Of a stretch of DNA of 32,453 bases, positions 12,693 to 32,319 are shown piece after piece. The first letter of the stretch is position 1; each line of letters starts with the position of its first letter. The DNA comes from Pseudomonadota bacterium. GTDB lineage: Bacteria > Desulfobacterota > Desulfobulbia > Desulfobulbales > Desulfocapsaceae. The notes under the pieces were generated by a model. That model saw nothing but the letters and a program-made list of their open reading frames with translations, was not told the origin of the DNA and did not search any database. The translations under genes were made by a program, and so were the position numbers. The stretch covers positions 1-32,453 of the forward strand of contig JAEYNP010000081.1 in NCBI GenBank assembly GCA_023412495.1. The letters run 5' to 3'.

Positions 12693-12815
12693 CAGTTACA
12701 CACAGAAAGGTGGGAAATCTGGGGGATTGCACAGCCAATGCAGTCGCGGCTCATCTGTTGGCAGCGAAAAAAACATAACCCTTTCCGCTTCTTAGAGCAA
12801 GAAAATTTCCTTGCC

Positions 12816-12956
12816 GGGAGGCTGTCGGATAAATAGCCTTTTTTTCTCAGATCGAGGCATTTTTGAAAATGAAGCGCAGTAATATACATAATATTACGAG
12901 CATTAAGGAAAATAACGAAGAGATGGGAAAAAGGGCATGATCCGACAGACTCCTAG
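12816..12956. mobile_element. Palindromic CTAG-ended element, copy A (MITE-like)
   Basis: A full-length copy aligning from end to end with the element at 15686-15833. The left end reads GGGAGGCTGTCGGAT and the right end ATCCGACAGACTCCTAG, forming terminal inverted repeats. It is 5 bases shorter than the other copy because of small indels. The interior contains CTCAGATCGAGGCATTT and ATATTACGAGCATTAA, shared with copy B. It has no coding capacity. The right-end CTAG contains the TAG stop (read on the minus strand) of the neighbouring pseudouridine synthase gene. Confidence 0.75.
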
Positions 12957-13639
12957 AAGGGTGGCGCCGAGGTGAACTCTACTGCAAGACCGGTCGAGGG
13001 GTGGCTGAAGCGGAGGAAACCGGCGTGGAGCATCATTTTATCACCGTCCCGGCCGCTGCCGTAGAGGCTGTCCCCGACGATGGGGGCTCCGAGGCCTCGA
13101 GGGTGGGCGGCGTGGACCCGTAGCTGGTGGGTCCGGCCGGTGAGCGGGATGAAATCGATCCTGGTGACCCTGCCTTCCACGGCGATCCTGCGCCAGCGGG
13201 TGATCGCCGGCTTGCCGTGCTCGGGGTCGTAGATCTGCAGCGGGCGGTTGTCCGGGTCGAGACGAAAGGGCAGCTCAATCATCCCGCCGTCGCCGCCGAC
13301 GACACCCTCGACCAGCGCCGTGTAGCGCTTTTCCACCACCCTGCCGGCGAACTGAAGGGAGAGCGCGCGGTGGGCCGCACCGGTCACGGCGAAGACCATG
13401 AGCCCCGAGGTGTAGAGATCGAGGCGGTGCACGGCCGGCTGGGGGATCATTTCGGGCAGCAGGGCGCGAAGTCTGGCTGCGGCGCTGTCTTCCTTCTCAG
13501 GGCCGCGGCCGGGGACGGCGAGGAGGCCGCCGGGCTTGTCGATCACCACGAGCGCCTCGTCTCGGTGGAGGATGACCATTTCCCCGTACTGCCTGAATGG
13601 CATGAGGTTGTGTCTGTTACGCAGGTAATGTCCGCTCAT
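12953..13639 (-). CDS. RluA family pseudouridine synthase
   Basis: An enzyme converting uridine to pseudouridine in rRNA or tRNA. The motif HRLDLYTSG (71-79) carries the catalytic Asp74. VVIDKPGGLLAVPG (31-44) and the GRTHQLRVHAAH stretch are also typical of RluA. I chose the ATG at 13639 over the upstream one at 13705 because AAGGAG lies at good distance before it and because it overlaps the stop of the upstream gene as ATGA, which implies translational coupling. This gives 228 residues. There is no S4 domain. Position specificity (RluA-like or TruC-like) cannot be fixed from sequence alone. The stop codon TAG lies within the terminal CTAG of the adjacent palindromic element, so the end of this gene may have been set by insertion. 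Confidence 0.88.
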   Translation of the reverse strand: MSGHYLRNRHNLMPFRQYGEMVILHRDEALVVIDKPGGLLAVPGRGPEKEDSAAARLRALLPEMIPQPAVHRLDLYTSGLMVFAVTGAAHRALSLQFAGRVVEKRYTALVEGVVGGDGGMIELPFRLDPDNRPLQIYDPEHGKPAITRWRRIAVEGRVTRIDFIPLTGRTHQLRVHAAHPRGLGAPIVGDSLYGSGRDGDKMMLHAGFLRFSHPSTGLAVEFTSAPPF

Positions 13640-14430
13640 GCGGTCTCCTTGCCGGAAATGCCGGAATCCAGGCCGCAGAGCATGAAGCCCAGGATCGGCG
13701 CGCATTTTTCAGCACAGGAGCCGTTGAAGGTGTCGTGACGGCGGCCTCCCGAGCGGTTTTCGCGGCCCCAGTAGAACTCCGCCAGGCCCACCGGCCGCAG
13801 CCCCCTGCGCGCCGCACAGTTGAGGAGTTTCGGGCCGCAGCAGTCGCCCGTGCCGGTGGGAATGTTGCCCTCGCCGAGAAAGGCTTCGAAGAGCCGCACC
13901 GTTTCTCCCCGAAAATTGGTCAGCCGGTACAGGTCGTGGATATCCCTCATCAGTCGTCTGCTGAGGAGGCGGCGCTCTTTCTTGAGGGCCGGCCGGTTGT
14001 CGGAGTGGGCAGGGCAGTGATCGATCTCCCGGCCCAGCTCCTTGATCCGCAGCTCCGTGTCGGTGCAGAGGGCGGTGAATTCGTCGACGTCGAAGAGCGG
14101 CGGCGCCCAGCCATCGACCAGCCAGCGGCCGTTGTACTGGCCGGAAAAGGCTCGCAGGAAGGTTGTTGTGCCATCCGGGCGCAAGCATTCGAGAATCCCG
14201 AACATCTTGCCGCGGGCGGGACCGAAGAGCCAGTCGGTGGCAAGGGCGGGGTCGGGAGTATTGGACGAGAAGAGATCGATGGTCCCTCCGGCGAGTTGCC
14301 GCATCAATTCGAGGCAGGGGCCGAGGGTGTTGCCGGGTCCGATCCGGTGTATCCGCCCGCATCTCCGGCAATAGCCGCCGCTGGTGAGGGCGGGAGTTTC
14401 GGAATGGATTGTCTCGGGCAAATAGTCCAT
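13636..14430 (-). CDS. Conserved Cys-rich partner of RluA-type pseudouridine synthase
   Basis: A protein of about 264 residues with an N-terminal CRRCG motif (Cys21, Cys24). The C-terminal half contains TGDCCGPKLLNCAARRGL, AEFYWGRENRSG and EKCAPILGFMLCGL. I recall a similar segment (GTGDCCAPKLL..., then AEFWWG) as the N-terminal portion of long RluA-family proteins in some gamma-proteobacteria. Here it is a separate gene overlapping the RluA gene by ATGA, so the two are likely made together and act together. The biochemical role is unknown; the cysteines suggest metal binding. The start is uncertain: the frame is open to 14661, but that would overlap the divergent kinase gene. ATG at 14430 and ATG at 14508 are candidates, neither with a strong ribosome site. 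Confidence 0.65.
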   Translation of the reverse strand: MDYLPETIHSETPALTSGGYCRRCGRIHRIGPGNTLGPCLELMRQLAGGTIDLFSSNTPDPALATDWLFGPARGKMFGILECLRPDGTTTFLRAFSGQYNGRWLVDGWAPPLFDVDEFTALCTDTELRIKELGREIDHCPAHSDNRPALKKERRLLSRRLMRDIHDLYRLTNFRGETVRLFEAFLGEGNIPTGTGDCCGPKLLNCAARRGLRPVGLAEFYWGRENRSGGRRHDTFNGSCAEKCAPILGFMLCGLDSGISGKETA

Positions 14431-14651
14431 GGGAAGATTGCGGCCATTGTTTTTTGCGAGGGGTATTGTCAGTGGCGAAGCCTGAAGATACCCGTCGGCT
14501 GCAACCATGGCAAGCTTCTGCTCAAGCCGGCATCGAGCGGTCCGGGAAAAGAGATATTTCGGTAAATGATTTTGCTGTGTTACTATACAAACACAATTAA
14601 TTTTTTCCGGGCCGGCGACGGCGTGGTTATTTTTCTCCCAGGGGGTGGACA

Positions 14652-15656
14652 ATGGCAGCACAGCAGAATCAAGAAAAGGGCTTTCCGGAGCTGGGGCCGG
14701 ACCGGGTTCTGAATCTGGCCGAAAAGGCCCTGGGGGTCCCCTGCAGCAATCTCTTTCGCCCCCTGAACAGCTACATCAACCGGGTTTTCGAGATCGAAAC
14801 CCGCGAGGGCACCCGGCTGGTGGCAAAATTCTACCGGCCCGGCCGGTGGTCCAGGGAGGCGATCCTCGACGAGCACCGTTTTCTCCTCGCCCTGGCGGAC
14901 CAGGAGATTCCGGTGGTGGCGCCCGTTCAGCTGCCGGGCGGCGGCACCCTGGTGGAGGCCGACCGGCTGCTGTTCGCCCTCTTCCCGAAGTGCGGCGGGC
15001 GGAGCGTCGACGAGTTCACCGAGGATCAGTGGCTCCAGCTGGGCCGCCTGCTCGGCAGGGTCCATAGCGTGGGGGCGGCCGCCGCGGCGGAGAATCGCAT
15101 CGTCATGATGCCGGGCCGCTCGACCCGCGACCAGCTCGACTATCTGCTCAAATCCTCTTCGGTGCCGGCCGATCTCAAGGGGGCGCTGGAGCAGGCGGGC
15201 CTGGCGATCATCGCCGACATCGAGCCTCTTTTTTCCTCATCCGGCCTGATCCGCATCCACGGCGACTGCCATTTTTCCAACATCATCCATCGCCCCGGCG
15301 AATCGTTCTATCTCATCGATTTCGACGACATGGCCATGGGGCCGCCGGTCCAGGATGTCTGGATGCTACTGCCGGGTGACGCGGGCGAGGCTTTCGTCGA
15401 GCTTGATCTCTTCCTCGAAGGCTACGAGACCTTCCATCCCTTCGACCGAAGAACTCTCCGGCTGATCGAACCCCTCCGCGCCATGCGCTATATCCATTAT
15501 ATGGCCTGGTGCGCCTATCAGGTGGAGGGCGACGGCCTCACCCGCGCCATCGACGGCTTCGGTTCATGGGAGTACTGGCAGAAGGAGATCGCCGACCTCG
15601 TCGACCAGCGGCAGCGGATAGCCGAAGCGCCGAAGGATTACGGGAATATGCTGTAG
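14652..15656 (+). CDS. srkA: SrkA/YihE-type stress response protein kinase
   Basis: A 334-residue kinase-fold (APH-like) protein matching SrkA (YihE) in length and motifs. Lys59 in LVAKFYRPG is the expected ATP-binding lysine. HGDCHFSN (203-210) is the catalytic loop with Asp205. LIDFDDMAMGPPVQDVWMLL from about 221 holds the metal-binding Asp223 and the SrkA-type tail. In E. coli SrkA is a Ser/Thr kinase that counters stress-induced cell death; the same role here is inferred. The ATG is preceded by a G-rich stretch (AGGGGG) at about 7 bases. It is divergent from the RluA-partner gene. Downstream, 29 bases beyond its stop, the second full palindromic element begins, lying between this gene and a convergent one. 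Confidence 0.9.
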   Translation: MAAQQNQEKGFPELGPDRVLNLAEKALGVPCSNLFRPLNSYINRVFEIETREGTRLVAKFYRPGRWSREAILDEHRFLLALADQEIPVVAPVQLPGGGTLVEADRLLFALFPKCGGRSVDEFTEDQWLQLGRLLGRVHSVGAAAAAENRIVMMPGRSTRDQLDYLLKSSSVPADLKGALEQAGLAIIADIEPLFSSSGLIRIHGDCHFSNIIHRPGESFYLIDFDDMAMGPPVQDVWMLLPGDAGEAFVELDLFLEGYETFHPFDRRTLRLIEPLRAMRYIHYMAWCAYQVEGDGLTRAIDGFGSWEYWQKEIADLVDQRQRIAEAPKDYGNML

Positions 15657-15685
15657 TGCGCGGACGTGCGGCGCAGGGTGCTTTC

Positions 15686-15833
15686 CTAGGAGCCTGTCGG
15701 ATTATAGACATTTTTTCTCAGATCGAGGCATTTCCGAAAATTAAGCGCAGTCATATACTTAATATTACGAGCATTAATTTTTTGGAAATAACGAAGAGAT
15801 GGGGAAAAAGGGCATAATCCGACAGGCTCCTAG
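15686..15833. mobile_element. Palindromic CTAG-ended element, copy B (MITE-like)
   Basis: The best-preserved copy. It is bounded by CTAG on both sides, with nearly perfect terminal inverted repeats: AGGAGCCTGTCGGATTAT on the left, and ATAATCCGACAGGCTCCT on the right. The interior is also palindromic: TTTTTTCTC against GGGGAAAAA, and ATTTCCGAAAATTAA against TTAATTTTTTGGAAAT. Almost the whole 148 bases could therefore fold into one long imperfect hairpin centred near 15760. It has no coding capacity. It sits at a convergent junction, 29 bases past the kinase stop and 1 base from the stop of the minus-strand gene, where it could act as a bidirectional terminator. Because CTAG is itself a palindrome, it could be a target duplication or part of the repeat. 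Confidence 0.8.
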
Positions 15834-15834
15834 A

Positions 15835-16104
15835 TCATTTTTCATACCGCTCTTCTGTACGCCGGGCCTCGGGCGCCTGCTCGTCCAGAGATTGCCGATA
15901 TTTGATGCAACCTTGGAGAAAGTGCGGCCAGTCCGGCACCGATGGCGAGGGATCGGTCTTTTCCGGCAACAGGGCCCAGAGGGCGGGATGATGCCAGCAG
16001 AGTTCATGGCCGCTGCTGTCGCGATGGCGGCGGATGCCCTGCCTGAGCCTTTTTATTTCTTCGACGAGTTGTTCCCGGGACATTGTTTCGAGGTCTTCAT
16101 CCAT
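15835..16104 (-). CDS. Small conserved protein of unknown function
   Basis: An 89-residue soluble, charged protein. It begins with a short helical segment rich in Glu, Arg and Leu (SREQLVEEIKRLRQGIRRHR), then SSGHELCWHHPALWALLPEK with a His/Cys/Trp-rich patch, then PDWPHFLQGCIKYRQSLDEQ. I recognise this layout as a small conserved family but know of no function. A strong ribosome site, AAAGGAG, precedes the ATG. It lies 34 bases downstream of the spermidine-synthase-like gene on the same strand and is probably co-transcribed with it. The palindromic element copy B starts one base after its stop. Confidence 0.65.
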   Translation of the reverse strand: MDEDLETMSREQLVEEIKRLRQGIRRHRDSSGHELCWHHPALWALLPEKTDPSPSVPDWPHFLQGCIKYRQSLDEQAPEARRTEERYEK

Positions 16105-16138
16105 GGCTGTTCTCCTTTCATATGAAAAGGTACGGCAG

Positions 16139-16939
16139 TCAGCTCAGTCTCGCGATCCATCGTTTGGTCATGCTGAGATTGTTCTGCTTGATCGATCCGG
16201 TCAGCTGTCTGAAATCGATGCCGAAGCGTTTCTTGCGCTCGGCAATTTCGCTGCTCTTGGCGTAGATCCGCGACCAGGGAACCGCAAAGGGCATGGCCAG
16301 CGCGATGACGTTGCCGCGGTCGGGGACCGGCAGGAAGAGACAGCCGGCAAAGACGGCGGCGAGGGTCGATTTTATCTCCCGGAACCGGACCTGGTCATCG
16401 CTCCACAGGTTGCAGCTGACGACGCCGTCTTCGCTGAGACGCTCCCGGCAGAGCCGGAAGAAGGGGGCGTCATAGATGGTCGGGGCCATCCCCCGGTCGT
16501 CGAAGGCGTCGACCAGGATAAGGTCGTAGATTTTTTTCGTTTCATTTATAAGAAATTCCAGGCCGTCGCGGCAGAATATCCGCACCCGGCGGTCCTCCTC
16601 CGCCAGATGGAAATAGCCTCTGGCGGCGGCGATGACCTGGGGCGAGCAGTCGACGGCGTCGATAAGGCAGTCCTTGTAATGATAGTGAAAGAAACGGACG
16701 AACGACCCGGCGCCTATCCCGATCACCAGTATCCTGGCCGGCACGGGCTGGATGAGAAGGGCGGCGGCCATATAGCGCGTGTAGGAGAGGATCAGCTCGT
16801 GGGGCCGGCTGAGCGACATCCGGCTCTGCAGATGACCTGAACCGAAATAGAGAGAACGATGATCGCCGTTATCGAAGATTTTCACCAGATGACCATTCCA
16901 GTAATCACTGTGGATCATCCGGCCCTGGGTGTCGGACAT
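16139..16939 (-). CDS. Spermidine synthase-like methyltransferase-fold protein
   Basis: A 266-residue Rossmann-fold protein of the spermine/spermidine synthase group. Visible are the AdoMet-type loop ILVIGIGAGSF (70-80), the acidic motif DAVDCSP (94-100) and LILVDAFDDRG (140-150), where spermidine synthases hold an active-site aspartate. YRARDG-like nucleotide contacts appear as IFCRDGLEFL. It is shorter than classical SpeE and lacks its N-terminal beta-strand domain, so it may not make spermidine. Polyamine transfer, thermospermine-like chemistry or another transfer reaction is possible. The start could be TTG 16948, ATG 16939 or ATG 16918; no clear ribosome site decides, and I chose 16939. 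It is divergent from the receiver gene, and the small 89-residue gene follows it closely. Confidence 0.65.
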   Translation of the reverse strand: MSDTQGRMIHSDYWNGHLVKIFDNGDHRSLYFGSGHLQSRMSLSRPHELILSYTRYMAAALLIQPVPARILVIGIGAGSFVRFFHYHYKDCLIDAVDCSPQVIAAARGYFHLAEEDRRVRIFCRDGLEFLINETKKIYDLILVDAFDDRGMAPTIYDAPFFRLCRERLSEDGVVSCNLWSDDQVRFREIKSTLAAVFAGCLFLPVPDRGNVIALAMPFAVPWSRIYAKSSEIAERKKRFGIDFRQLTGSIKQNNLSMTKRWIARLS

Positions 16940-16985
16940 GGCGGACAATGAGATGTATTTCCAACACCCCGCAAGGGGGGTATAA

Positions 16986-17035
16986 GTACCTTACACGAAA
17001 TTCGTTTCAAACAAGAAAACGAAGTTCTAAGGTAC
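16986..17035. promoter_or_regulatory. Imperfect 50-bp inverted repeat between divergent genes
   Basis: GTACCTTA (16986-16993) pairs with TAAGGTAC (17028-17035). Further inside, TTCGTTTC and GAAAACGAA also pair nearly fully, leaving a small loop. It sits between the spermidine-synthase-like gene and the promoter of the receiver gene, and could be a regulator site, an attenuator hairpin in the minus-strand leader, or a remnant of a small element. No T run follows. Confidence 0.5.
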
Positions 17036-17092
17036 TGATAGGACTGCCGGGGCGACCGACAAGCGGCCACGCCCTCCGGGCCCGCAAATTTC

Positions 17093-17122
17093 TTGACTGT
17101 TTCCTTTGTATTTTGGCATACT
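17093..17122 (+). promoter_or_regulatory. Sigma70-type promoter for the receiver gene
   Basis: TTGACT at 17093-17098 and CATACT at 17117-17122 are separated by 18 bases. The predicted start of transcription near 17129 precedes the AAGGAG ribosome site (17164-17169) and the TTG start at 17176. This also argues that the longer open frame beginning at 16948 is not translated. Confidence 0.6.
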
Positions 17123-17175
17123 ACAGCATGATGTCAACAGGTCAAGGCGGTAAAGGCGTTTTGAAGGAGCAACCC

Positions 17176-17565
17176 TTGCAGAAAAACGAGCAGAGAAAGA
17201 AGATTCTCATCATGGACGATGAGGAGATGGTCGGGGACATAGCCTGCCAGATGCTGGAATTTCTGGGTTTTTCTGCCGTCTGGGTGGCAAACGGCGCGGA
17301 TGCTGTCAAGCAGTACCGGCAGCACAATGAGGCCGGGCAGGGGTTTGCGGCGGTGGTCATGGACCTCAATATTCCCAGCGGCATGGGCGCAAAAGAAGCC
17401 ATCACCGAGATCCTCGCCATCGACAAGGACGCGAAAGTTTTCGTCTCCAGTGGCTATTCCGGCGATCCGACCATGGTCAACTACCAAAACTACGGCTTTG
17501 CCGGGGCCATCGCCAAACCCTTCGACCTCGCTGCCATGCAGGAAATGCTCAAGACCCTGAGCTGA
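17176..17565 (+). CDS. Stand-alone response regulator receiver domain (CheY-like)
   Basis: A 129-residue single receiver domain. Acidic Asp14/Asp15 (IMDDEE) bind magnesium, Asp63 in VVMDLNIP is the phosphorylation site, Ser91/Ser92 (VSSGYSG) form the switch position and Lys114 in IAKPFD is the conserved lysine. No output domain follows, so it would signal by protein contact or act in a phosphorelay. I chose the TTG at 17176 because AAGGAG sits 6 bases upstream and a sigma70 promoter lies just before it; upstream in-frame ATGs at 17128/17131 overlap the expected transcription start. No kinase gene is adjacent. The MFS gene begins 25 bases later and may be co-transcribed. Confidence 0.88.
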   Translation: MQKNEQRKKILIMDDEEMVGDIACQMLEFLGFSAVWVANGADAVKQYRQHNEAGQGFAAVVMDLNIPSGMGAKEAITEILAIDKDAKVFVSSGYSGDPTMVNYQNYGFAGAIAKPFDLAAMQEMLKTLS

Positions 17566-17589
17566 TTCCGGTGCCGCCGGTTCCTTCCC

Positions 17590-18750
17590 GTGACCGACTC
17601 CACAACCAGATACCTCTATTTCGCCACCATTGTCACCTTCTGCTCCCTCTACGGGGCGCAGCCGATCCAGCCGGTGTTCAAGAGCGAGTTTCAGCTCACC
17701 CACCTCCAGGCAATACTCTTCACCACCCTGATGATGGCCCCGCTGGGCGTGGCCCCCTTGGTCTATGGCTACCTCCTCGAATCCTACTCCGCAAAGACGA
17801 TGCTTCGCTGGGCCCTTTTTCTGCTCGGCATCCTGGAACTCCTGTTCGCCATGGCCGATAACTACCTCGCCCTGCTCGCCATCCGCGGCATACAGGGGCT
17901 GATGATCCCGGCCATCCTGACTTCGCTCATGAGCTATATCAGCTACACCTCGCGGGAGGTCCAGCAGGCTATCGCCGCCTATATCGCAGCGACCATCCTC
18001 GGCGGCTTTCTGGGGCGTTTTCTCTCGGGACTCTGCACCGATCTCTTCGGCTGGCGGGTGTTCTTCTTCGCGCTCGGACTGCTGCTGCTGCTCACCTGCT
18101 TTTTGCTGCGGTCCATGGCCCGTGACGCCAAGGCGAAATACGCCCGGCCGAAGCTGAGCGAAATTGCAGGACTCTTGCGGTCGAGGGAGTTCATCTGGCT
18201 CTACGCTTCCATCTTCTGCCTCTTCTTCGTTTTTGCCGCGATGATGAATTTTTTGCCCTTCGAGCTCAAGAAAATCAACCCCGCGTCGAAGGAAACCGGG
18301 GTCGGACTGCTCTATCTCGGCTACAGCATGGGCATCCTCGTCTCCCTTAATACCGGGAGGATCATCCGCTTCTTCGGCAACGAATCCGATGCCATAGGGG
18401 CGGGAATAGTGATTTTCGCGCTCGGGACCCTCTCTTTCATGATCGAGACCTATTCGGTGATGTTTTTCGGCATGTTCGTCTTCTGCGCGGGACTCTTCAC
18501 CGCCCACTCGCTGCTCTCCGGCTTCGTCAACCGGCTGGCCAGGGACAACAAGGCGATCGCCAACGGTCTCTATATCTCCTTCTACTACACCGGCGGTACG
18601 CTCGGCTCGGTGCTACCGGCGGCGGTCTTCCAGCACTACGGCTGGCAGGCATTTCTGGTGCTGCTTCTGGTCATGATCGGTTTCGCCCTGTTTTTCACCC
18701 GCCGCCTGAAGTGCGCGCTGGCGGCGGTCGGGAGAGGGAGGACTGGGTGA
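17590..18750 (+). CDS. MFS transporter
   Basis: A 386-residue protein with about 12 hydrophobic segments, in two halves joined by a basic cytoplasmic loop (about 175-195, SMARDAKAKYARPKL). The first half includes the long conserved loop region LLAIRGIQGLMIPAI and the third-to-fifth segment pattern of drug/metabolite exporters. Length and layout fit the major facilitator superfamily, most like drug:proton antiporters or YnfM-type carriers; the substrate cannot be named. The start is GTG at 17590, without a clear ribosome site, 25 bases after the receiver gene. It converges on a MATE transporter gene; the gap holds a 9-mer inverted array and a remnant of the palindromic element. Confidence 0.85.
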   Translation: MTDSTTRYLYFATIVTFCSLYGAQPIQPVFKSEFQLTHLQAILFTTLMMAPLGVAPLVYGYLLESYSAKTMLRWALFLLGILELLFAMADNYLALLAIRGIQGLMIPAILTSLMSYISYTSREVQQAIAAYIAATILGGFLGRFLSGLCTDLFGWRVFFFALGLLLLLTCFLLRSMARDAKAKYARPKLSEIAGLLRSREFIWLYASIFCLFFVFAAMMNFLPFELKKINPASKETGVGLLYLGYSMGILVSLNTGRIIRFFGNESDAIGAGIVIFALGTLSFMIETYSVMFFGMFVFCAGLFTAHSLLSGFVNRLARDNKAIANGLYISFYYTGGTLGSVLPAAVFQHYGWQAFLVLLLVMIGFALFFTRRLKCALAAVGRGRTG

Positions 18751-18759
18751 CGGATGGGG

Positions 18760-18819
18760 GTGGACTTCGTGGACGAGGTGATTGCAGTCAACAATGTCCA
18801 CGCAGTCCACCCAGTCCAC
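18760..18819. repeat. Inverted pair of 9-bp tandem arrays (GTGGAC/GTCCAC)
   Basis: GTGGAC starts at 18760 and 18769, with a degenerate third unit at 18778. After a short spacer, GTCCAC starts at 18796, 18805 and 18814. The period is exactly 9 in both arms and the arms are inverted relative to each other, so the RNA could form a hairpin. It lies at the convergent junction of the MFS and MATE genes. Confidence 0.7.
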
Positions 18820-18834
18820 TCGGACTACAAAAAA

Positions 18835-18857
18835 GGTAATAATCCGACTGCCCCTAG
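18835..18857. mobile_element. Right-end remnant of the palindromic element, copy C
   Basis: The sequence AAGGTAATAATCCGACTG then CCCCTAG matches the right terminal repeat of copies A and B with a few substitutions. No left end is recognisable; instead the 9-mer array lies directly to the left. The terminal CTAG (18854-18857) contains the TAG stop of the minus-strand MATE gene. Confidence 0.55.
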
Positions 18858-20257
18858 ACCACCGGCCCATCCTCGATCACCAGCATCCTCTGCCAGACTC
18901 CCTGCCGGAAACGCCATGCGGCGAGGAGAAACAGCACGGTGACGAAGAAGAGGACCCAAAGCCAGGCGGTGACGACGGTGATCTGCAGGTACTCTACGCC
19001 GATAAAGACAGGCAGCACCAGGCAGGAAGGGGAGGCGAGCGCCACGGCGAGCGTCATGAAGCGGGTGTCTCCCGCGCCGCGCAGGGCGCCGGAGAGGACC
19101 ATGTAGAGGGCGTCGCAGAACAGGTAGGCGCTGACGATCTTGAGAAGATCTTCGCCGAGGGCGGCCACCGCCTGCCGGGAGGCGGCATCGCTTGCGCCCG
19201 AGGCGAGGAAAGGCGCGAGGACCGTATCGGGCGAGAAGAGAAACAGCAGGTCGATCGCCAGGATATAGAGGAGCAGCAGCTGGCAGCCGCCGCGCACGTA
19301 TCCGCTTGCCTGGTCGGGATTGCCCCGGCCGAGCGCCTGTCCCACCAGGATGCTGACTCCCTGGGACACCCCCATGGAGGGCATGAAGGCCAGCGCGTTG
19401 ATGGACAGCACGATGTTGGTGGCGGCGAGTTCCAGCTTGCCGATCCGCCCGACCAGCAGGATGAAAAAGGTGAAGGCCAGGATGTCCATGGTGAACTGGA
19501 ACGAACCCGGGATGCCGAACCGCATGAGACGGGCGAAGATCTCCCGGTCGAGACGCCGGCGGCGGTAGACGCCGAACCTCCGGTCGTGCTCGCGGGTGAA
19601 GATCAGCAGCGCCAGACAGATCACATTGACGCCCCAGGCGGCGACCGTGGCGATGGCGGCACCTCTGATGCCCATTTCCGGCATCCCCCACCTGCCGAAT
19701 ATCAGGGCATAATCGAGCGGAATATTGACGAGCACCCCGATAAGTGTGATGATCATCACCGGCCGCGTAATGCCCCGGCCGGAAAAGAAGGTCGAAAGGG
19801 TGATCATCAACATATGGAGCACGGCGCCCTGGCAGAGGATGGAAAAATAGATCTCCTCCTGGGCCCGCACCTCCGGCGGATGACCGGCGAGGGCGAAGAG
19901 GGGCTTGGTGACGAAAAACGACAGCAGGGCGAGGGCGAGACCCGAGGCCAGGGAGAAGTGAATGCCTTGCCACAGCACGGTGCCTATCTTTTCCTTGTCG
20001 CCCCGGCCGGTATACTGGGCGATGAAGACGCCGGCGTAACCGCCGATCCCGCCCAGAAAGGCGATGGGGAGGTAAGAGAGGATGCCGGCCGGAAGGGCGG
20101 CGGAGATGGCATCGAGGCTGTAGTTGGCGAGGAAGATCCGGTCGGTGAATTCCATGATCGTCGTCGCCGACAGGCTGAGAACCAGCGGCAGGCAGACGGC
20201 GAGCACTTCCCGGTAGTAATTCTTGCTCCGGATGTTGCGTAGAAAGTCGTTCATCAA
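18854..20257 (-). CDS. MATE family efflux transporter
   Basis: A 467-residue inner-membrane protein with about 12 hydrophobic segments. Family features include VLAVCLPLVLSLSATTIMEFTDRIFLANYS at the N-terminus (helix 1 with the polar turn), the glycine-rich ALPAGILSYLPIAFLGGIGGYAG and the repeat of these features in the second half (GIPGSFQFTMDILAFTFFILLVGRIG). Length matches MATE exporters, which expel cationic drugs or metabolites using a sodium or proton gradient. The closest group and substrate cannot be fixed. Start ATG at 20257 or 20254. It is divergent from the nitroreductase gene, with a gap of only 45 bases. Its TAG stop lies in the CTAG of an element remnant. Confidence 0.88.
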   Translation of the reverse strand: MMNDFLRNIRSKNYYREVLAVCLPLVLSLSATTIMEFTDRIFLANYSLDAISAALPAGILSYLPIAFLGGIGGYAGVFIAQYTGRGDKEKIGTVLWQGIHFSLASGLALALLSFFVTKPLFALAGHPPEVRAQEEIYFSILCQGAVLHMLMITLSTFFSGRGITRPVMIITLIGVLVNIPLDYALIFGRWGMPEMGIRGAAIATVAAWGVNVICLALLIFTREHDRRFGVYRRRRLDREIFARLMRFGIPGSFQFTMDILAFTFFILLVGRIGKLELAATNIVLSINALAFMPSMGVSQGVSILVGQALGRGNPDQASGYVRGGCQLLLLYILAIDLLFLFSPDTVLAPFLASGASDAASRQAVAALGEDLLKIVSAYLFCDALYMVLSGALRGAGDTRFMTLAVALASPSCLVLPVFIGVEYLQITVVTAWLWVLFFVTVLFLLAAWRFRQGVWQRMLVIEDGPVV

Positions 20258-20302
20258 TAGTTTCGTTGCGGGTTAATATGATTTGACGAGGTGCTGAGAA
20301 AA

Positions 20303-21214
20303 ATGCCGATGAAACAGGTAATCATCGATCGGCGGAAATGCACGGGTTGCGAAATCTGCGTGGGCATCTGCCCTGACCGGGCCATTTTTATCAAGGATGG
20401 TTCCGCCCGGCACAACGGCTCGGAATGTCTTCTCTGCGGCCACTGCCGGGCGGTGTGCCCGGCCGACGCGGTCCGTCTGCCGGATCGGTCGGAGCGGCTT
20501 GGGCTGGTCACGTGTGCCGAGAAGACGGGGGTGGTTCCACCGGGAAAGAGCGATTGCGCCGAGCTGGTCGCCCTGATGAACTCCCGCCGCTCCTGCCGCA
20601 GGTATCGGGAGCAGGCGGTGCCGCTCGACCTGCTCACCGACCTGGTCAAGATCGGCACCACCGCTCCCTCCGGGACCAACAGCCAGGGCTGGAACTTCAT
20701 CATCCTGCCTTCCCGGGAGGATCTGCTGGTTCTGGGCGGTCTGGTCGCTGATTTCTACTGCAGACTGAACCGGCTGGCGGCGAACCCCCTGTTGCGCCTG
20801 CTGACGAAATTTCTGGACGGGGACAGTCTCGGGCGGTATTACCGCAAGTATTACTCCTCGGTGGCCAAGGCCCTGCGGGAATGGGACGAGGAGGGGACGG
20901 ACCGGCTCTTCCATGGAGCGACCGCTGCCATCCTGGTCACCGGCCGCAGGGATGCCGGCTGTCCTGCCGAGGACGCCCTGCTCGCCACTCAGAATATGCT
21001 GCTTGCCGCCCATGCCATGGGACTCGGCAGTTGTTTGATCGGCTTTGCGGTGGAGGCGGTGCGCCGCTCGAAGGTGGCGAAGCGGATGATGGAGATCCCG
21101 CAGGCGGAGGAAATTTACAGCGTCATCGCGCTGGGCTATCCGGCGGTGAGTTACCTGCGGCCTACATGCCGCCGCAGGGTCGCGCCGCGGATTCTGCGGC
21201 CTGCGGCTAAGTGA
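20303..21214 (+). CDS. Ferredoxin-nitroreductase fusion oxidoreductase
   Basis: The N-terminus is a two-cluster ferredoxin domain with Cys13, 16, 19, 23 and Cys42, 45, 48, 52 (CTGCEICVGICP and CLLCGHCRAVCP), enough for two [4Fe-4S] clusters. From about residue 90 follows an FMN-binding nitroreductase domain (ELVALMNSRRSCRRYR, TTAPSGTNSQGWNFI, and ALLATQNMLLAAHAMGLGSCLIGF). Such fusions are typical of anaerobes and transfer electrons from iron-sulfur clusters to flavin to reduce nitro compounds, quinones or unknown metabolites. I chose ATG 20303 (GAGGTG about 10 bases upstream) over GTG 20291; ATG 20309 is also possible. The RapZ-like gene follows after 28 bases on the same strand. Confidence 0.9.
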   Translation: MPMKQVIIDRRKCTGCEICVGICPDRAIFIKDGSARHNGSECLLCGHCRAVCPADAVRLPDRSERLGLVTCAEKTGVVPPGKSDCAELVALMNSRRSCRRYREQAVPLDLLTDLVKIGTTAPSGTNSQGWNFIILPSREDLLVLGGLVADFYCRLNRLAANPLLRLLTKFLDGDSLGRYYRKYYSSVAKALREWDEEGTDRLFHGATAAILVTGRRDAGCPAEDALLATQNMLLAAHAMGLGSCLIGFAVEAVRRSKVAKRMMEIPQAEEIYSVIALGYPAVSYLRPTCRRRVAPRILRPAAK

Positions 21215-21242
21215 CGGGGCTATGGAAGAAGGACAGGAAAAT

Positions 21243-21671
21243 ATGGAAAAAAATGAGGATGCCGTGCCGTTGCGGGTGGTGGTTTTTTCATTCGGATTCA
21301 AATATGGCCCACCTGTCGACGTGAATTTCCTCTGGGACGTGCGGATACTGCCCAATCCCCACTGGGTGACGGAACTGCGGCCCGGCACGGGGCTCGAACC
21401 GGCGGTGGCGGATTACGCCCTGGAGAACGAGACGGGCCGGACATTTTTTCGCCGGCTCGCGCCGCTTATCGACTTTCTCGTCGAGCAGAGCCTGGACGCC
21501 GAAAAGAAGGTCCTGCGCATGGCCGTCGGTTGTACCGGCGGCAGGCACCGGTCCGTGGCCGTCGCCGAGAAGATCGCCACCCTTCTGGCCGAAGCCTGTG
21601 CCGGCAGGCCTGTGGAACTGACGGTCTTCCACCGGGATATCCACCGGGACGGCGGAAAGGAGGGAAGTTGA
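21243..21671 (+). CDS. RapZ C-terminal domain protein (solo domain)
   Basis: A 142-residue protein matching only the C-terminal half of RapZ. Conserved motifs are FSFGFKYGPP, DVRILPNPHW, ELRPGTGLEPAV and GCTGGRHRSVAVAEKIA. The N-terminal P-loop kinase-like half of full RapZ (about 285 residues) is absent. In E. coli the RapZ C-terminal domain binds the small RNA GlmZ and the metabolite GlcN6P; whether the solo domain binds RNA or a sugar phosphate is unknown. The start at 21243 is preceded by AAGGA and AGGA; ATG 21222 is the alternative. It lies 28 bases (7 if the earlier start is used) after the nitroreductase and is probably in one operon with it. Confidence 0.8.
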   Translation: MEKNEDAVPLRVVVFSFGFKYGPPVDVNFLWDVRILPNPHWVTELRPGTGLEPAVADYALENETGRTFFRRLAPLIDFLVEQSLDAEKKVLRMAVGCTGGRHRSVAVAEKIATLLAEACAGRPVELTVFHRDIHRDGGKEGS

Positions 21672-21683
21672 TCGGTTGGAAAT

Positions 21684-21995
21684 TTATTGGGATTTCAGTT
21701 CCTGCAAGGTTTTCCGGTCGAGAGAATTTTTTTCCTTCGCGGTGAAATAAGCCCGGGGATTATTTTCGAGGTCGGCAACATTTTGCAGGAATTCCTTCTT
21801 CTTCTGTTCAAAACACGACTCTTTCGCCCTCTTTCGACTGCGCTCCCGGCACTTTTGCGAACCCTGTTGGTATTTCTCCGCGAGGATAAGTTTCTCGTCA
21901 CTTATTCTTTGGGCCAGCGGCAGCTTCTCTTTCCCCCTGCCGAAGGCTGGTGTGCAACAGAGCAGAAGGGCGGCCAGCAATAGTATTATCTTCAT
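21684..21995 (-). CDS. Small secreted protein of unknown function
   Basis: A 103-residue protein with a clear signal peptide (MKIILLLAALLLCCTPAFG) followed by a Lys/Glu/Gln-rich, mostly helical mature part containing two cysteines (QKCRERSRKRAKESCFEQKKKEF). The start at 21995 is preceded by AAAAGGA at proper distance; an ATG two codons earlier lies inside that site. A short lipoprotein-like Cys-Cys is present in the hydrophobic region, but no clean lipobox. It is convergent with the RapZ-like gene (12 bases between stops). Function not recognised. Confidence 0.6.
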   Translation of the reverse strand: MKIILLLAALLLCCTPAFGRGKEKLPLAQRISDEKLILAEKYQQGSQKCRERSRKRAKESCFEQKKKEFLQNVADLENNPRAYFTAKEKNSLDRKTLQELKSQ

Positions 21996-22033
21996 AAGCA
22001 TCCTTTTCGGTTCGATTTCGATTCCTGATACAT

Positions 22034-22048
22034 CCGAATGCCATTCGG
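22034..22048. promoter_or_regulatory. Perfect short inverted repeat CCGAAT-GCC-ATTCGG
   Basis: Six-base perfect arms around a three-base spacer lie 39 bases upstream of the small secreted protein gene (minus strand). It could be an operator or a small RNA hairpin; nothing else supports either choice. Confidence 0.35.
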
Positions 22049-22080
22049 GTCAATGCCAAAGGAGGCCGACCGGGAAGAAT

Positions 22081-22117
22081 CTACCCAGGATCAGCCCTTG
22101 TCCGGTGGGTAGTTTTT
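22081..22117 (+). terminator. Orphan terminator-like hairpin
   Basis: CTACCC (22081-22086) and GGGTAG (22107-22112), with extra pairing between AGGA and TCC inside, are followed by TTTTT. It reads as a plus-strand terminator, but no plus-strand gene ends within about 400 bases upstream, since the gene immediately to the left runs on the minus strand. It may end a small RNA or stop read-through into the next gene. Confidence 0.45.
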
Positions 22118-22207
22118 ACCTATTTGCCGGTCCTTTTTCTTGTTGCGGTTAACCTTTTAATGTTTAATTTATTGAAAAAACAAAGAGATGAGCGATTTTT
22201 TGGGAGA

Positions 22208-22223
22208 TGGCATCAGCGTTGCT
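22208..22223 (+). promoter_or_regulatory. Sigma54-type (-24/-12) promoter of the ZraP-like gene
   Basis: TGGCAT, five bases, then TTGCT matches the sigma54 consensus, with GG and GC exactly ten bases apart. It lies about 100 bases before the ATG of a ZraP/Spy-like gene. E. coli zraP is itself sigma54-dependent through the activator ZraR, so position and gene type agree. The activator site upstream was not identified; no ZraSR-like genes are in the window. Confidence 0.6.
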
Positions 22224-22326
22224 TAATCTTTTGCGAAGACGGACGGCGGACAAGCGAGCAAATCGCAACCGACATAAAAGCAACCAACTGTTCACGGGAA
22301 CAGGCAATTCAACAAAGGAGACAGAA

Positions 22327-22815
22327 ATGAAAAAGCAAATCGTAGCAATCGCTCTCGTCGCAGGACTTTCCATGGCAACCGTCACCTCGGCGGCGTGGGG
22401 CAGGGGCGGTCACGGTCCCGGCGGCCATGGCGGCGGCTGGGGCGGCTACTGGGATTGTCCCATGCAGGGTCAGATGATGCAGCAGCTCGACGCCGACACC
22501 AAGGCCAAGGTCACCAAATTTTTCAAGGACAATCAGGCCCTGCATAAGCAGATAGCGATGAAACGGGCGGAGAAGATGGCGCTCATGCGAAGCGACAATC
22601 CCGATCCCAATGCCGCGGCGAAGGTGACGGGGGAACTCTTCGACCTCCATACGGCAATGATGGAAAAAGCTGAAGCCGCAGGCGTCTCGCAGTATCTCGG
22701 ACCCATGGGCGGCCGTGGAATGGGTCGCGGCATGATGGGTAGAGGTATGATGGGCGGCCAGGCACCAGCCGGTGGTGACACCCCGGGTGCGGCCGGAAAC
22801 GCACCTCAGCAGTAA
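22327..22815 (+). CDS. ZraP/Spy-like periplasmic metal-stress protein
   Basis: A 162-residue exported protein. A signal peptide (MKKQIVAIALVAGLSMATVTSA) is followed by a His/Gly-rich stretch (GRGGHGPGGHGGGWGGYW), a helical core (LDADTKAKVTKFFKDNQALHKQIAMK and later GELFDLHTAMMEKAEAAG) and a Gly/Met-rich tail (GMGRGMMGRGMMGG). This layout is that of zinc-resistance-associated ZraP and the CpxP/Spy chaperone group, which bind metals and protect periplasmic proteins under envelope stress. The His-rich and Met-rich parts suggest zinc, copper or similar metals, an inference. The start follows AAAGGAG by 6 bases; the open frame upstream to 22207 is leader. It is preceded by a sigma54-type promoter and followed by a strong terminator, so it is a single-gene unit. 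Confidence 0.8.
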   Translation: MKKQIVAIALVAGLSMATVTSAAWGRGGHGPGGHGGGWGGYWDCPMQGQMMQQLDADTKAKVTKFFKDNQALHKQIAMKRAEKMALMRSDNPDPNAAAKVTGELFDLHTAMMEKAEAAGVSQYLGPMGGRGMGRGMMGRGMMGGQAPAGGDTPGAAGNAPQQ

Positions 22816-22847
22816 CAGTCGGTACAGAACAAGAAATCCTCCCAGGG

Positions 22848-22904
22848 CCCCGCAAGCGATCTTTCTTCTTCCATCGGAAGAAAAAGGCGCGAGCGGGGTT
22901 TTTT
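22848..22904 (+). terminator. Rho-independent terminator of the ZraP-like gene
   Basis: CCCCGC (22848-22853) pairs with GCGGGG (22893-22898), and TTCTTCC with GGAAGAA inside, followed by TTTTTT. It lies about 30 bases after the stop codon. Confidence 0.85.
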
Positions 22905-23014
22905 GTGCTGGAGCGGGGCTTCCTCGAGGAGTATGATCATTGGCAGGCAGGGTGAAAGAACTTCTTCCCTGCAGAGCCGTCGGGTTTATATTTTCCATCA
23001 GCAAGGTGAAAGAT

Positions 23015-23788
23015 ATGAAGATCGTCACACTGCCCTGTTCCTTCGACAACTACGCTTACTTGGTATTCGACGAGGTAACCGGTATGGCCGCGGTCGTCGA
23101 TCCGGCGGAGTACTACCCTGTTTCCCGCGCGGTGGCGAATGCCGGGGTCTCCCTGCGGGCGATTCTCTGCACCCATCATCACGCCGATCATATCGGCGGC
23201 CTGGAAGATCTGCTGGAGGAATTTCCCGATGTCGATGTCTACGGGCATGCGGGGGATAAACGGCGGATTCACGGTCTCAACCGTCCTCTCTCCGATGGCG
23301 AAACGGTGAAAATCGGCCAGGTCGAGGGGCAGGTCCTGCATACTCCCGGTCATACCACCGGCAGCATCTGCTACCTCTTCGGGGACGACCTCTTTACCGG
23401 CGACACCCTGTTCGGAGCCGGTTGCGGCAGATTGTTCGAGGGGACGCCGAAACAGATGCACGATGCCCTGACCACTATCGTCTGCAGTCTGCCTCCCGCC
23501 ACCAGAGTCTATTTCGGCCACGAGTATACTGCCCATAACCTCAAGTTCGCCGGCTTCGTCGAACCCGACAACGGTGCCGTCGCCGCCCGCCGGGAACAGG
23601 TGGACGCGCAGCGAGCCGCAGGTCGGCCAACCACTCCCTCCACCCTGGCCGACGAGGCCGCGACCAATCCTTTCCTCCGCTGCGCCGAGCAGGGGATCGT
23701 AGATACCGTCGCCCGGAGGTTTTTCGGAGAAGACCTTGACCCTCTTTCGGTGTTCACCGCCCTGCGTCGGCTGCGGGATGGGTTTTGA
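23015..23788 (+). CDS. gloB: Hydroxyacylglutathione hydrolase (glyoxalase II)
   Basis: A 257-residue metallo-beta-lactamase-fold hydrolase. THHHADH (53-59) is the binuclear metal site; HTPGHTTGS and FTGDTLFGAGCGRLFEG carry the further metal ligands; YFGHEYT and NLKFA match the glyoxalase II substrate region. The length equals the family. The reaction splits S-lactoylglutathione (or another thiol adduct) to D-lactate, completing methylglyoxal removal. ATG 23015 is preceded by AAGGTG; the open frame upstream to 22940 lacks family resemblance. The gene for the alkyltransferase-like protein follows immediately, possibly coupled. Confidence 0.93.
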   Translation: MKIVTLPCSFDNYAYLVFDEVTGMAAVVDPAEYYPVSRAVANAGVSLRAILCTHHHADHIGGLEDLLEEFPDVDVYGHAGDKRRIHGLNRPLSDGETVKIGQVEGQVLHTPGHTTGSICYLFGDDLFTGDTLFGAGCGRLFEGTPKQMHDALTTIVCSLPPATRVYFGHEYTAHNLKFAGFVEPDNGAVAARREQVDAQRAAGRPTTPSTLADEAATNPFLRCAEQGIVDTVARRFFGEDLDPLSVFTALRRLRDGF

Positions 23789-23814
23789 ACCTGCAGGCAA
23801 GCCGACGCATCGTG

Positions 23815-24156
23815 ATGGAAAAGAGAGAAAGGGCGCAAGGGAAAGACGCCTTCACGATGCGGGCGGTGGAGATCATCCGCAGCATCCCCGCAGGCAGGGT
23901 AACCACCTACGGCATTATCGCCGCCGGGGCGGGGAACCGGCGCGGGGCCCGTCAGGTGGCGAGGATCCTGCATTCCTGCTCGGAGAAATACGGCCTGCCG
24001 TGGCATCGGGTGGTGAACCGCAACGGCGGGATCTCCGTACGGTCGTCCATGGGCTACCTCTACCAGCGCGGTCTCCTGGCGGAGGAAGGGGTGCTCATCG
24101 GCTCGGACGGGAAGATCGATTTCGCCGAATACCTGTGGCGGCCGGAGGAGGAATGA
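23815..24156 (+). CDS. Alkyltransferase-like protein (ATL, MGMT family)
   Basis: A 113-residue protein resembling the DNA-binding domain of O6-alkylguanine-DNA alkyltransferase: VEIIRSIPAGRVTTYG (about 18-33), then RRGARQVARIL, then LPWHRVVNRNGGIS. The reactive-site motif PCHRV of true alkyltransferases reads PWHRV here, with Trp63 in place of the cysteine. This is the hallmark of ATL proteins, which bind alkylated guanine without repairing it and pass the lesion to nucleotide excision repair. The start is uncertain: ATG 23815 is chosen, GTG 23812 is possible, and TTG 23785 would overlap the glyoxalase II stop (TTGA) and imply coupling. Confidence 0.85.
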   Translation: MEKRERAQGKDAFTMRAVEIIRSIPAGRVTTYGIIAAGAGNRRGARQVARILHSCSEKYGLPWHRVVNRNGGISVRSSMGYLYQRGLLAEEGVLIGSDGKIDFAEYLWRPEEE

Positions 24157-24169
24157 CCCGGCGCTGGGA

Positions 24170-24193
24170 GTCCACAACGTCCACCTTGTCACC
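24170..24193. repeat. 9-bp tandem array of GTCCAC units
   Basis: GTCCAC starts at 24170 and 24179 and GTCACC at 24188, period 9. This is the same unit and orientation as the right arm at 18796-18819. As there, a right-end remnant of the palindromic element follows within a few bases, before the stop of a convergent minus-strand gene. Confidence 0.6.
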
Positions 24194-24202
24194 CGCTCTC
24201 CC

Positions 24203-24236
24203 GGAGGAAAAAGGGCATAATCCGCCAGGCTCCTAG
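24203..24236. mobile_element. Right-end remnant of the palindromic element, copy D
   Basis: GGAGGAAAAAGGGCATAATC then CGCCAGGCTCCTAG matches the last about 34 bases of copy B (one substitution in the terminal repeat). No left end is present. The terminal CTAG (24233-24236) contains the TAG stop of the minus-strand lipoprotein gene. Confidence 0.7.
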
Positions 24237-25258
24237 AATTTCCATCCCCAGTAGGACAGAAACCTCGGAAAGTCCTTCATATCCGAGGCGCGTCTGGCCC
24301 AGAATTTCAGGCTGGTGTAGAAGACTGTATCGCTCCGGTCATGGACGCTGTAGGCCTTGTCCTCGCCGATACGGAGGTCGAAGGCCCACCAGCTCATAAG
24401 GAGCCGCTCGAGGATTTTCGTATTGTCCTTCACATAGCCCTCCCTGCATCCCTCCGTCTCGAAAAAGGGAATGGTGCCGTCCCTGTACGGCAGGGCATAA
24501 AGGGCGTGCATCGGCAGGAGTTCCATCTCCCGGCGGGGCAGCTTTTCTCTTTCTTGCCGGTCGAGCAAGCCGACATCCCGGACGCGGTGGGTCTCGCCGG
24601 CGAGAGTGAACATGATGCGCTCTTCGATGTCCTCACGGGGCGGTTCGATCCTGCCCGGCAGGGTGTAACCGTAGACCTCCTGCGTCTCGCCCGGCCAGTC
24701 CGGGGGGTAGGCCTCGGGCGGCAGGTTTTTGGTGGGAAGAAATGCGAGATAGCAGCCGCAGGTATGGACGGTGGTGACGAGCAGAAGCTCCGAGCTGTCA
24801 CTCAGGGTGTAGATGATAAGCAACCCCGGATTGCTGCCGGCTGTGAGGTTGATCCTGCCCCAGTCGAGGGGGACTTCCGGGAAGTGGATGCGATAAACGA
24901 GGTTGGTGTACCGGCCTTTTGCCGTGGTGAATTCCTGTATTTCGTAGTAGAGGGCGGGATTATCAGGGTCGACGAAGACTTCCGGCTGACTGCCCGGCAC
25001 CTCCCGTGCACTCGGCGAGCCTATCCTGTTGAAGGTTTCCGAGGAATGCTCGGGAAGAAAGACCGGAGTGTGGGCGGCGGCAACGGCCGGCGGCGAGGGG
25101 GCATGGTACAGAGTGATATCCTCCGGCTGGCCCAGCGGATGCCGGGCACAGCCGGAAACGAGAATGAACCAGGTCAGCAGCGACAGGAAGGCCGGCGTAT
25201 AAATCATCCGCGGCAACTCGATTGCCGATTCCCGTGCAGGGATCCTTCTTGTGCTCAT
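24233..25258 (-). CDS. Lipoprotein of unknown function
   Basis: A 341-residue protein. A basic N-terminus and hydrophobic stretch (MIYTPAFLSLLTWFILVSGC) end in a lipobox, with Cys37 as the probable lipidated residue. The mature part begins with a Pro/Ala-rich linker, then a mixed soluble domain with Trp- and Tyr-rich segments, a CGC motif (TVHTCGCYLAFLP) and the end motif FPRFLSYWGWKF. No family recognised. I chose ATG 25258 because GGGAGGT precedes it at about 9 bases; ATG 25207 is an alternative. It lies 65 bases downstream of rubrerythrin on the same strand. The TAG stop lies in an element remnant, so the last residues may not be ancestral. Confidence 0.65.
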   Translation of the reverse strand: MSTRRIPARESAIELPRMIYTPAFLSLLTWFILVSGCARHPLGQPEDITLYHAPSPPAVAAAHTPVFLPEHSSETFNRIGSPSAREVPGSQPEVFVDPDNPALYYEIQEFTTAKGRYTNLVYRIHFPEVPLDWGRINLTAGSNPGLLIIYTLSDSSELLLVTTVHTCGCYLAFLPTKNLPPEAYPPDWPGETQEVYGYTLPGRIEPPREDIEERIMFTLAGETHRVRDVGLLDRQEREKLPRREMELLPMHALYALPYRDGTIPFFETEGCREGYVKDNTKILERLLMSWWAFDLRIGEDKAYSVHDRSDTVFYTSLKFWARRASDMKDFPRFLSYWGWKF

Positions 25259-25282
25259 GGCTGGTTTACCTCCCTGATCCTT

Positions 25283-25305
25283 CCCGGCCAACTGTCTCGG
25301 CCGGG
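25283..25305 (-). terminator. GC-rich hairpin between rubrerythrin and the lipoprotein gene
   Basis: CCCGGCC and GGCCGGG form a perfect 7-bp stem around a 9-base loop in the 65-base gap after the rubrerythrin stop. No T run follows on the minus strand, so it is either a weak terminator or an RNA-stabilising hairpin. Confidence 0.4.
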
Positions 25306-25323
25306 AGGACAGTCTGCCGGCTC

Positions 25324-25845: not shown

Positions 25846-25900
25846 CGGTGTTTTTCCTCCGCTTGGGTATGGGTTGAAGATCCTAAACAAGAATGATTAC

Positions 25901-32307: not shown

Positions 32308-32319
32308 GTAAAAAAGAGA

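What the first reader, a model, noticed from the sequence alone, without database searches (positions are those of the whole stretch)
12816..24236. Palindromic CTAG-ended element whose right end abuts, and often supplies, stop codons
Two full copies (12816-12956, 15686-15833) and two right-end remnants (18835-18857, 24203-24236) occur within 12 kb. In all four the right end faces the 3' end of a minus-strand gene. In three (RluA, MATE, lipoprotein) the terminal CTAG contains that gene's TAG stop; in the fourth the element begins one base after a TGA stop. Three of the four sites are convergent gene junctions. The full copies are nearly palindromic over their entire length and could fold as one long hairpin. 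This suggests a non-autonomous element targeting CTAG, which is otherwise rare in such genomes, and so preferring stop codons; or an element domesticated as a bidirectional terminator.
Basis: partly seen in the sequence, partly recalled or inferred. Interest (0 to 1): 0.8.

Follow-up and report, generated by a model that had tools for sequence, protein, structure and literature searches.

The report
Hairpin mini-transposon that targets CTAG
The repeats are copies of a short, non-coding jumping DNA (a MITE that appears to be moved by IS1182-type transposases) that sits in the rare word CTAG and doubles it; because some TAG stop codons lie inside a CTAG, it can land exactly on a gene's stop codon without changing the gene.

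Summary
Relatives include complete IS1182-family ISs with the same ends, deletion derivatives with transposase fragments whose ends equal a MITE, and IS/MITE arrays that share single CTAGs. Empty sites are collinear with one 4-bp unit; for a sister IS, near-identical uninterrupted DNA reads CTAG at both junctions.

Stop codons: the RluA and lipoprotein stops sit at the same codon in five element-free relatives each, so they predate insertion. Pooled, 24 of 138 elements lie on a TAG stop: far above all CTAGs (25 of 666), only marginally above non-coding ones (24 of 132 against 25 of 234, p=0.055). No excess at convergent junctions; no terminator-like site at the elements. 'Targets CTAG' stands; 'prefers stop codons' mostly reduces to where CTAG occurs outside genes; 'terminator' is unsupported. 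Unexpectedly, the whole hairpin covaries among 40 copies, so the palindrome seems maintained.

The parts
12814..12956 (.). MITE copy A: left end CCGG (in place of CTAG) plus GAGGCTGTCGGA; right end TCCGACAGACTC plus CTAG
12953..12956 (-). right CTAG of copy A; holds the TAG stop of RluA
   Evidence: homologous stop codon in five relatives
15686..15833 (.). MITE copy B, intact: CTAG + GAGCCTGTCGGA ... TCCGACAGGCTC + CTAG
18830..18857 (.). right-end remnant 1; its CTAG holds the TAG stop of the MATE gene
   Evidence: score 18; at most 16 in 30 shuffles
24206..24236 (.). right-end remnant 2; its CTAG holds the TAG stop of the putative lipoprotein gene
   Evidence: one mismatch over 31 bp
12953..13705 (-). 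RluA-type pseudouridine synthase
   Evidence: Pfam PF00849
18854..20257 (-). MATE transporter
   Evidence: Pfam PF01554
24233..25435 (-).
15835..16104 (-). 89-aa ORF whose TGA stop lies one base right of copy B; no match in the relatives' regions compared

Best explanation
The repeats are MITEs mobilised in trans by IS1182-family DDE transposases. Shown by comparison in relatives: ISs that encode such transposases carry the same kind of ends and sit in CTAG; one 4-bp unit stands at the empty site where two CTAGs stand after insertion; at least one MITE type of the family derives from its IS by internal deletion. Inferred for the window: the same reaction placed copies A and B and the two remnants; no transposase was seen in the window and its genome is not held. 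Stop codons: a TAG stop preceded by C is a CTAG. Because the insertion doubles CTAG, the gene keeps its own stop and the event is silent for the protein, whereas insertions in coding CTAGs are mostly lost (inferred: 6 of 138 elements but 432 of 666 other CTAGs lie inside called ORFs). For RluA and the lipoprotein the stops were there first (shown by homology). Later the other end decays while the stop-bearing CTAG is kept by selection, which would explain why right ends survive here (inferred; a family-wide test was not significant).
For: Autonomous IS: 7 copies of 1847 bp in Desulfosediminicola flagellatus, 502-aa IS1182 transposase (NF033551, 383.8 bits, cut-off 270). ISs with the window's GTCGGA ends: Geobacteraceae L330 (1759 bp), Methylobacter L331 (1565 bp). 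Deletion derivatives: 620- and 545-bp Firestonebacteria elements with transposase fragments; their ends match the 152-bp MITE at 100% (101 and 104 bp) and 96% (71 bp). Arrays share one CTAG. D. flagellatus MITEs are 69-77% identical to the window copies and one matches its IS's right end at 70% over 74 bp; the G006 MITE is 90.5% identical to B. Empty sites: one 4-bp unit. Uninterrupted relatives of a sister IS's two flanks read CTAG at both junctions. Stops conserved without the element.
Against: Eight empty-site readings are not CTAG: CTGA, TTGA, CTTA (paralogous repeats, aligned for only 20-31 bp on the left), ATAG, AGAG, ATAA, and CTCG in two relatives; one 83% identical copy of the sister IS's left target reads CCAG, as does the L247 junction. 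All are diverged, so loss or gain of CTAG can explain them, but an exact CTAG target in near-identical DNA is shown only for the sister IS with CTAGCAG ends. No IS1182 transposase was found in G005 and G006, whose MITEs are 86% and 90.5% identical to B. The window's genome is not held. The window's own sites give homologous stops, not nucleotide-level empty sites. Many hosts are MAGs, so host assignment may be wrong in places.
Confidence: 0.93

Rival explanations
1. The element actively prefers stop codons or 3' ends of genes, beyond its CTAG specificity.
For: Three of four in the window; 18 of 86 against 13 of 161 non-coding CTAGs in the first data set (OR 3.0, p=0.005).
Against: Pooled and without duplicates: 24 of 132 against 25 of 234 (OR 1.86, p=0.055). 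1 of 19 in D. flagellatus. ORF calling was crude.
Confidence: 0.15
2. The hairpins were domesticated as bidirectional transcription terminators at convergent junctions.
For: Strong folding; three of four window sites are convergent; covariation of the hairpin.
Against: No terminator-like site at the elements (a simple consensus scan). Of 138 elements 31 are at convergent, 68 at co-directional and 36 at divergent pairs, 3 at edges, against 26.5, 73.1 and 37.5 kb of element-free gaps.
Confidence: 0.07
3. IS1272-like replacement: the element replaced older stem-loops such as terminators near stop codons, without target duplication.
For: IS1272, an IS1182-family member, replaces inverted repeats and leaves no TSD (PMC5678879, abstract and passages).
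Against: At the empty sites examined one 4-bp unit, not a stem-loop, stands at the junction.
Confidence: 0.03
4. CTAG is carried by the element and overwrites any 4-bp target.
For: Eight diverged empty-site readings are not CTAG.
Against: Uninterrupted DNA nearly identical to the two flanks of a sister IS has CTAG at both junctions; arrays share a single CTAG.
Confidence: 0.05

Closest known systems
IS1182 family, ISAzo2 (Aromatoleum aromaticum plasmid 2)
   Same: annotated IS1182-like; ends CTAG + CAGCCTGTCGG, CTAG on both sides
   Different: ISAzo2 is autonomous and has C where this family has G after CTAG; the window copies are non-coding and palindromic throughout
ISPse1 (IS1182 family, Paracoccus; PMC3281130, passages seen)
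   Same: listed with 16/16 inverted repeats and a 4-bp direct repeat
   Different: autonomous; its target word was not in the passages
IS1272 (IS1182 family; PMC5678879, abstract and passages seen)
   Same: family; that paper also cites IS1182 members that target palindromic sequences
   Different: replaces target inverted repeats, no target duplication
Palindromic bacterial MITEs such as ERIC, Correia and RUP (recalled; review PMC10969869, passages only)
   Same: short, hairpin-forming, mostly intergenic (recalled)
   Different: other parents and targets (recalled)

Membership tests
MITE | short, non-coding, terminal inverted repeats | tested here: met
   143 and 148 bp; B's outer 20 bp are exact inverses, A's with mismatches
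MITE | target-site duplication | tested here: met
   in relatives: one 4-bp unit at empty sites, two CTAGs when filled; outer C and G free in the pattern and present in 104 of 121; for the window's own sites only homologous stops
MITE | ends shared with an autonomous transposon | tested here: met
   L329, L330, L331; in other genomes
IS1182-family derivative | a partner transposase of the IS1182 family with these ends | tested here: met
   NF033551 over its cut-off in 4 of 16 genomes searched; these ends found around it in L329, L330, L331 and others, but not at the two Methylobacter marinus loci over the cut-off (L328, L339)
IS1182-family derivative | partner present in the window's genome | not testable with these tools
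   no genome held
IS1272-type stem-loop replacement | loss of a target inverted repeat, no TSD | tested here: not met
REP/REPIN (RAYT) elements | a small hairpin of its own at each end (recalled definition) | tested here: not met
   one hairpin over the whole length; RAYT genes were not searched
Intrinsic terminator | short GC-rich hairpin followed by a T run | tested here: not met
   none of the 13 listed sites (13.2 expected) lies at the elements
Known Rfam RNA | match at gathering score | tested here: not met
   0 matches in the window

The most novel reading that the evidence does not exclude
The full-length hairpin, not only the terminal repeats, matters to the element: a DDE-transposon MITE that is mobilised as, or protected by, a cruciform or single-strand hairpin, or that is kept palindromic by hairpin-templated correction. 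The arms therefore change together (18 of 46 pairs with double changes, 163 such cells against a mean of 61 in shuffles), and related elements have spread through several phyla.
Probability: 0.25. Interest if true: 0.65.

Novelty: new member of a known kind. Interest (0 to 1): 0.42.

Why it matters
It explains a striking pattern, repeat ends that read as stop codons, by a simple rule: a 4-bp CTAG target that is doubled, in a genome where CTAG is rare and TAG stops are among the safe places for it. It also gives annotators a signature (CTAGGAGNCTGTCSGA) for a MITE/IS1182 group found in several phyla, and a large natural data set in which to ask why a MITE stays palindromic.

Tried and rejected
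Rfam at gathering score and tRNA/tmRNA in the window: nothing. Reading the ends as IS630/mariner-type (TA target): dropped once the IS1182 transposase was found. REPIN: dropped, because there is one long hairpin. Terminator. Single-ended remnants keeping stop-bearing ends more often than ends of full elements: 11 of 81 against 26 of 281, p=0.30, not supported. Viral contigs with the 89-aa ORF: 55 stretches matched a pattern, none confirmed. Literature: in the rows listed by searches I saw no description of a CTAG-targeting IS1182 MITE. The sequence-word hit in PMC11077965 is a primer (passages). The Thiomargarita MITEs of PMC4853749 (passages) have TATAG or 10-bp direct repeats and differ. ISfinder and most subscription papers could not be searched.

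Limits of the counts. The scan pattern itself limits elements to 125-155 bp and fixes TAG...CTA. Genes were called as longest non-overlapping ORFs (at least 100 aa, 80 aa). Counted were only elements with CTAG at both ends and at least 400 bp or 300 bp of flank; duplicates by flank were dropped. Covariation cells count sequences, not events, the structure was derived from the same alignment, and I chose the 40 rows by hand from those that looked like the window's subfamily. Pairs in the terminal repeats may covary only because both ends follow one transposase.
Full report
Observation. The four sites are as described, with one change: copy A starts at 12814, where CCGG stands for CTAG. Copy B is intact, CTAG + GAGCCTGTCGGA ... 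TCCGACAGGCTC + CTAG. Both fold as one long hairpin with z-scores of -7.5 and -11.8 on the + strand. Remnant 2 matches B's right end with one mismatch over 31 bp. Remnant 1 is weaker (score 18; at most 16 in 30 shuffles and 13 in the rest of the window). CTAG is rare in the window: 12 against 121 expected from base composition.

What it is. Those 80 include Desulfobulbales, Acidobacteria, Gammaproteobacteria, Verrucomicrobia, KSB1, Firestonebacteria and Treponema; many are MAGs, but Desulfosediminicola flagellatus, Desulfogranum japonicum and Methylobacter marinus are isolates. The pattern allowed 125-155 bp and fixed TAG...CTA; the free outer bases were C and G in 104 of 121 elements. Inner sequences differ between lineages while the ends are shared. 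In the family of the nearest genome seen (G005; MATE 84% identical), 16 of 93 genomes carry at least one full element; in an even draw from the phylum, 10 of 395. One genus has tens of matches to a MITE-bearing query in several of its 13 genomes.

Its engine. D. flagellatus has 95 end motifs and seven 1847-bp ISs with the same kind of ends. Their 502-aa protein is an IS1182-family transposase (NF033551, 383.8 bits, cut-off 270; PF05598, PF13751). ISs with the window's GTCGGA ends exist in a Geobacteraceae genome (1759 bp) and a Methylobacter genome (1565 bp); their transposases are 59% identical to each other and about 28-33% to that of D. flagellatus. Of 16 genomes searched, 11 had some IS1182 match and 4 one over the cut-off; G005, G006 and three others had none, and at two full transposases of Methylobacter marinus these ends were not found. 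In Firestonebacteria, 620- and 545-bp elements with transposase fragments share both ends with the local 152-bp MITE (right 101 and 104 bp at 100%, left 71 bp at 96%): the expected path from IS to MITE. The D. flagellatus MITEs compared align with the window copies over their length (69-77%); one of them matches the right end of its IS at 70% over 74 bp; the G006 copy is 90.5% identical to B.

Target. In D. flagellatus an IS and two MITEs stand head to tail and share single CTAGs. Two further ISs there stand between a repeat and a MITE where a paralog (L247) has repeat and MITE without the IS, with CCAG at the junction; a looser paralog (L233) of a third has CTAG. Removing an element from L231 leaves a sequence that aligns with three paralogous repeats across the junction, over 20-31 bp on the left and about 92 bp on the right, with one 4-bp unit: TTGA, CTGA, CTTA. 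A Desulfocapsa element has ATAG in G082 and AGAG in G089; an element in G237 has ATAA in G498; a Mesorhizobium IS with CTAGCAG ends has CTCG in two relatives. None of these diverged empty sites is exactly CTAG. The exact test comes from a sister IS with CTAGCAG ends on a Pseudomonas kurunegalensis plasmid. Its left flank is 100% identical over 64 bp to an uninterrupted IS3-family copy (an ISPst4 relative by the annotation of another hit) that reads CTAG at the junction; a second copy, 83% identical, reads CCAG. Its right flank continues into two plasmid backbones (99.8% and 97.9% over about 528 bp) that both read CTAG at the junction. So CTAG is native target DNA there. The two flanks come from different uninterrupted places, which suggests an IS-made rearrangement in that plasmid (inference).

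Stop codons. In relatives of the window without the element, the stop codons of RluA (G054, G061, G063, G064, G059) and of the lipoprotein (G005, G054, G061, G063, G064) are at the same codon, as TAA, TGA or TAG. RluA of G005 is cut by a contig end and says nothing. The lipoprotein ortholog in G063 ends in CTAG without an element. MATE ends vary more, but CTAG stops with no element in the bases shown occur in two relatives (L164, L169). Hence the RluA and lipoprotein stops were there first. An element in G237 gives a further example: it lies on a TAG stop where its sister has TAA at the same codon.

Is there a preference? In the first 120 loci 18 of 88 counted elements lie on a TAG stop of a called ORF, 68 between ORFs and 2 inside; other CTAGs: 13 of 422, or 13 of 161 non-coding (p=1e-7 and 0.005). 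In D. flagellatus it is 1 of 19. In the pooled set without duplicates it is 24 of 138, with 97 between ORFs, 11 with an ORF running into the element and 6 inside; other CTAGs: 25 of 666. Against all CTAGs OR 5.4, p=1e-7; 24 of 132 against 25 of 234 non-coding CTAGs OR 1.86, p=0.055. Gene orientation shows nothing special: convergent 31, co-directional 68, divergent 36, edge 3, against 26.5, 73.1 and 37.5 kb of element-free gaps. At a rate of 24/138, three or more of four by chance is about 2% (hand calculation), and the window was picked for this pattern. I conclude that the main rule is 'CTAG outside genes', with at most a modest extra for stops.

A further result. Among 40 copies chosen as the window's subfamily, 96.8% of cells form standard pairs, and 18 of 46 pairs show double changes. 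There are 163 double-change cells against a mean of 61 in shuffles (0 of 500 as high); sliding the partner by 1-3 columns lowers this to 3-23. Some of this is co-evolution of the two terminal repeats with one transposase (for example GC/CG at columns 14:144). But inner pairs (63:100, 64:99, 65:98, 67:95, 73:90) also switch together. The palindrome therefore seems maintained, by selection on a hairpin or cruciform or by hairpin-templated correction; these data cannot tell which. The structure was derived from the same alignment and changes are inherited in groups, so the number of independent events is smaller than the cell counts.

Function in the host. No terminator-like site coincides with the elements (13 found in 12000-25000, 13.2 expected) and no Rfam family matches. 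One of the two best promoter-like matches of that stretch lies inside copy A (a consensus match only). I regard the copies as mostly neutral passengers (inference). A role in RNA processing, promotion or termination is not excluded.

Noticed in passing
6-8358: Two long ORFs (632 and 2161 aa) full of glycine- and aspartate-rich repeats that look like RTX calcium-binding repeats (from memory, no family search), overlapping at 1873-1904.
   Followed up: no
32316-32453: Short CTCAGTC-type repeats in both orientations at the window's right end.
   Followed up: no
18770-18830 and 24170-24190: GTCCAC-rich short repeats lie beside both remnants (CAGTCCACCCAGTCCAC..., GTCCACAACGTCCAC), possibly another small repeat or debris.
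   Followed up: no
12863-12892: A sigma-70-like promoter match (10 of 12) inside copy A, one of the two best of 12000-25000.
   Followed up: no
15835-16104: 89-aa ORF next to copy B has no match in the relatives' regions, where the APH-family and spermidine-synthase-like genes nearly abut in G054, G063 and G064; in G005 they lie 4.7 kb apart.
   Followed up: partly
24233-25435: The first 70-90 residues of this ORF overlap the ORF 25324-25890 and are not part of the long match in five of six relatives; the real start is probably further in.
   Followed up: no
L301, L307, L313, L314: MITEs of G258 carry inner sequence rich in CCCGCGNAAGCGGGGATCC, a different palindromic repeat inside the same ends.
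   Followed up: no
L358-L367 and table: One genus (13 genomes) has tens of MITE matches per genome in several species: a good system for empty-site and activity studies.
   Followed up: partly
L381:1397-2967: An IS1182 element on a Pseudomonas kurunegalensis plasmid joins an IS3-family fragment to unrelated backbone, with native CTAG on each side: looks like an IS-made rearrangement.
   Followed up: partly
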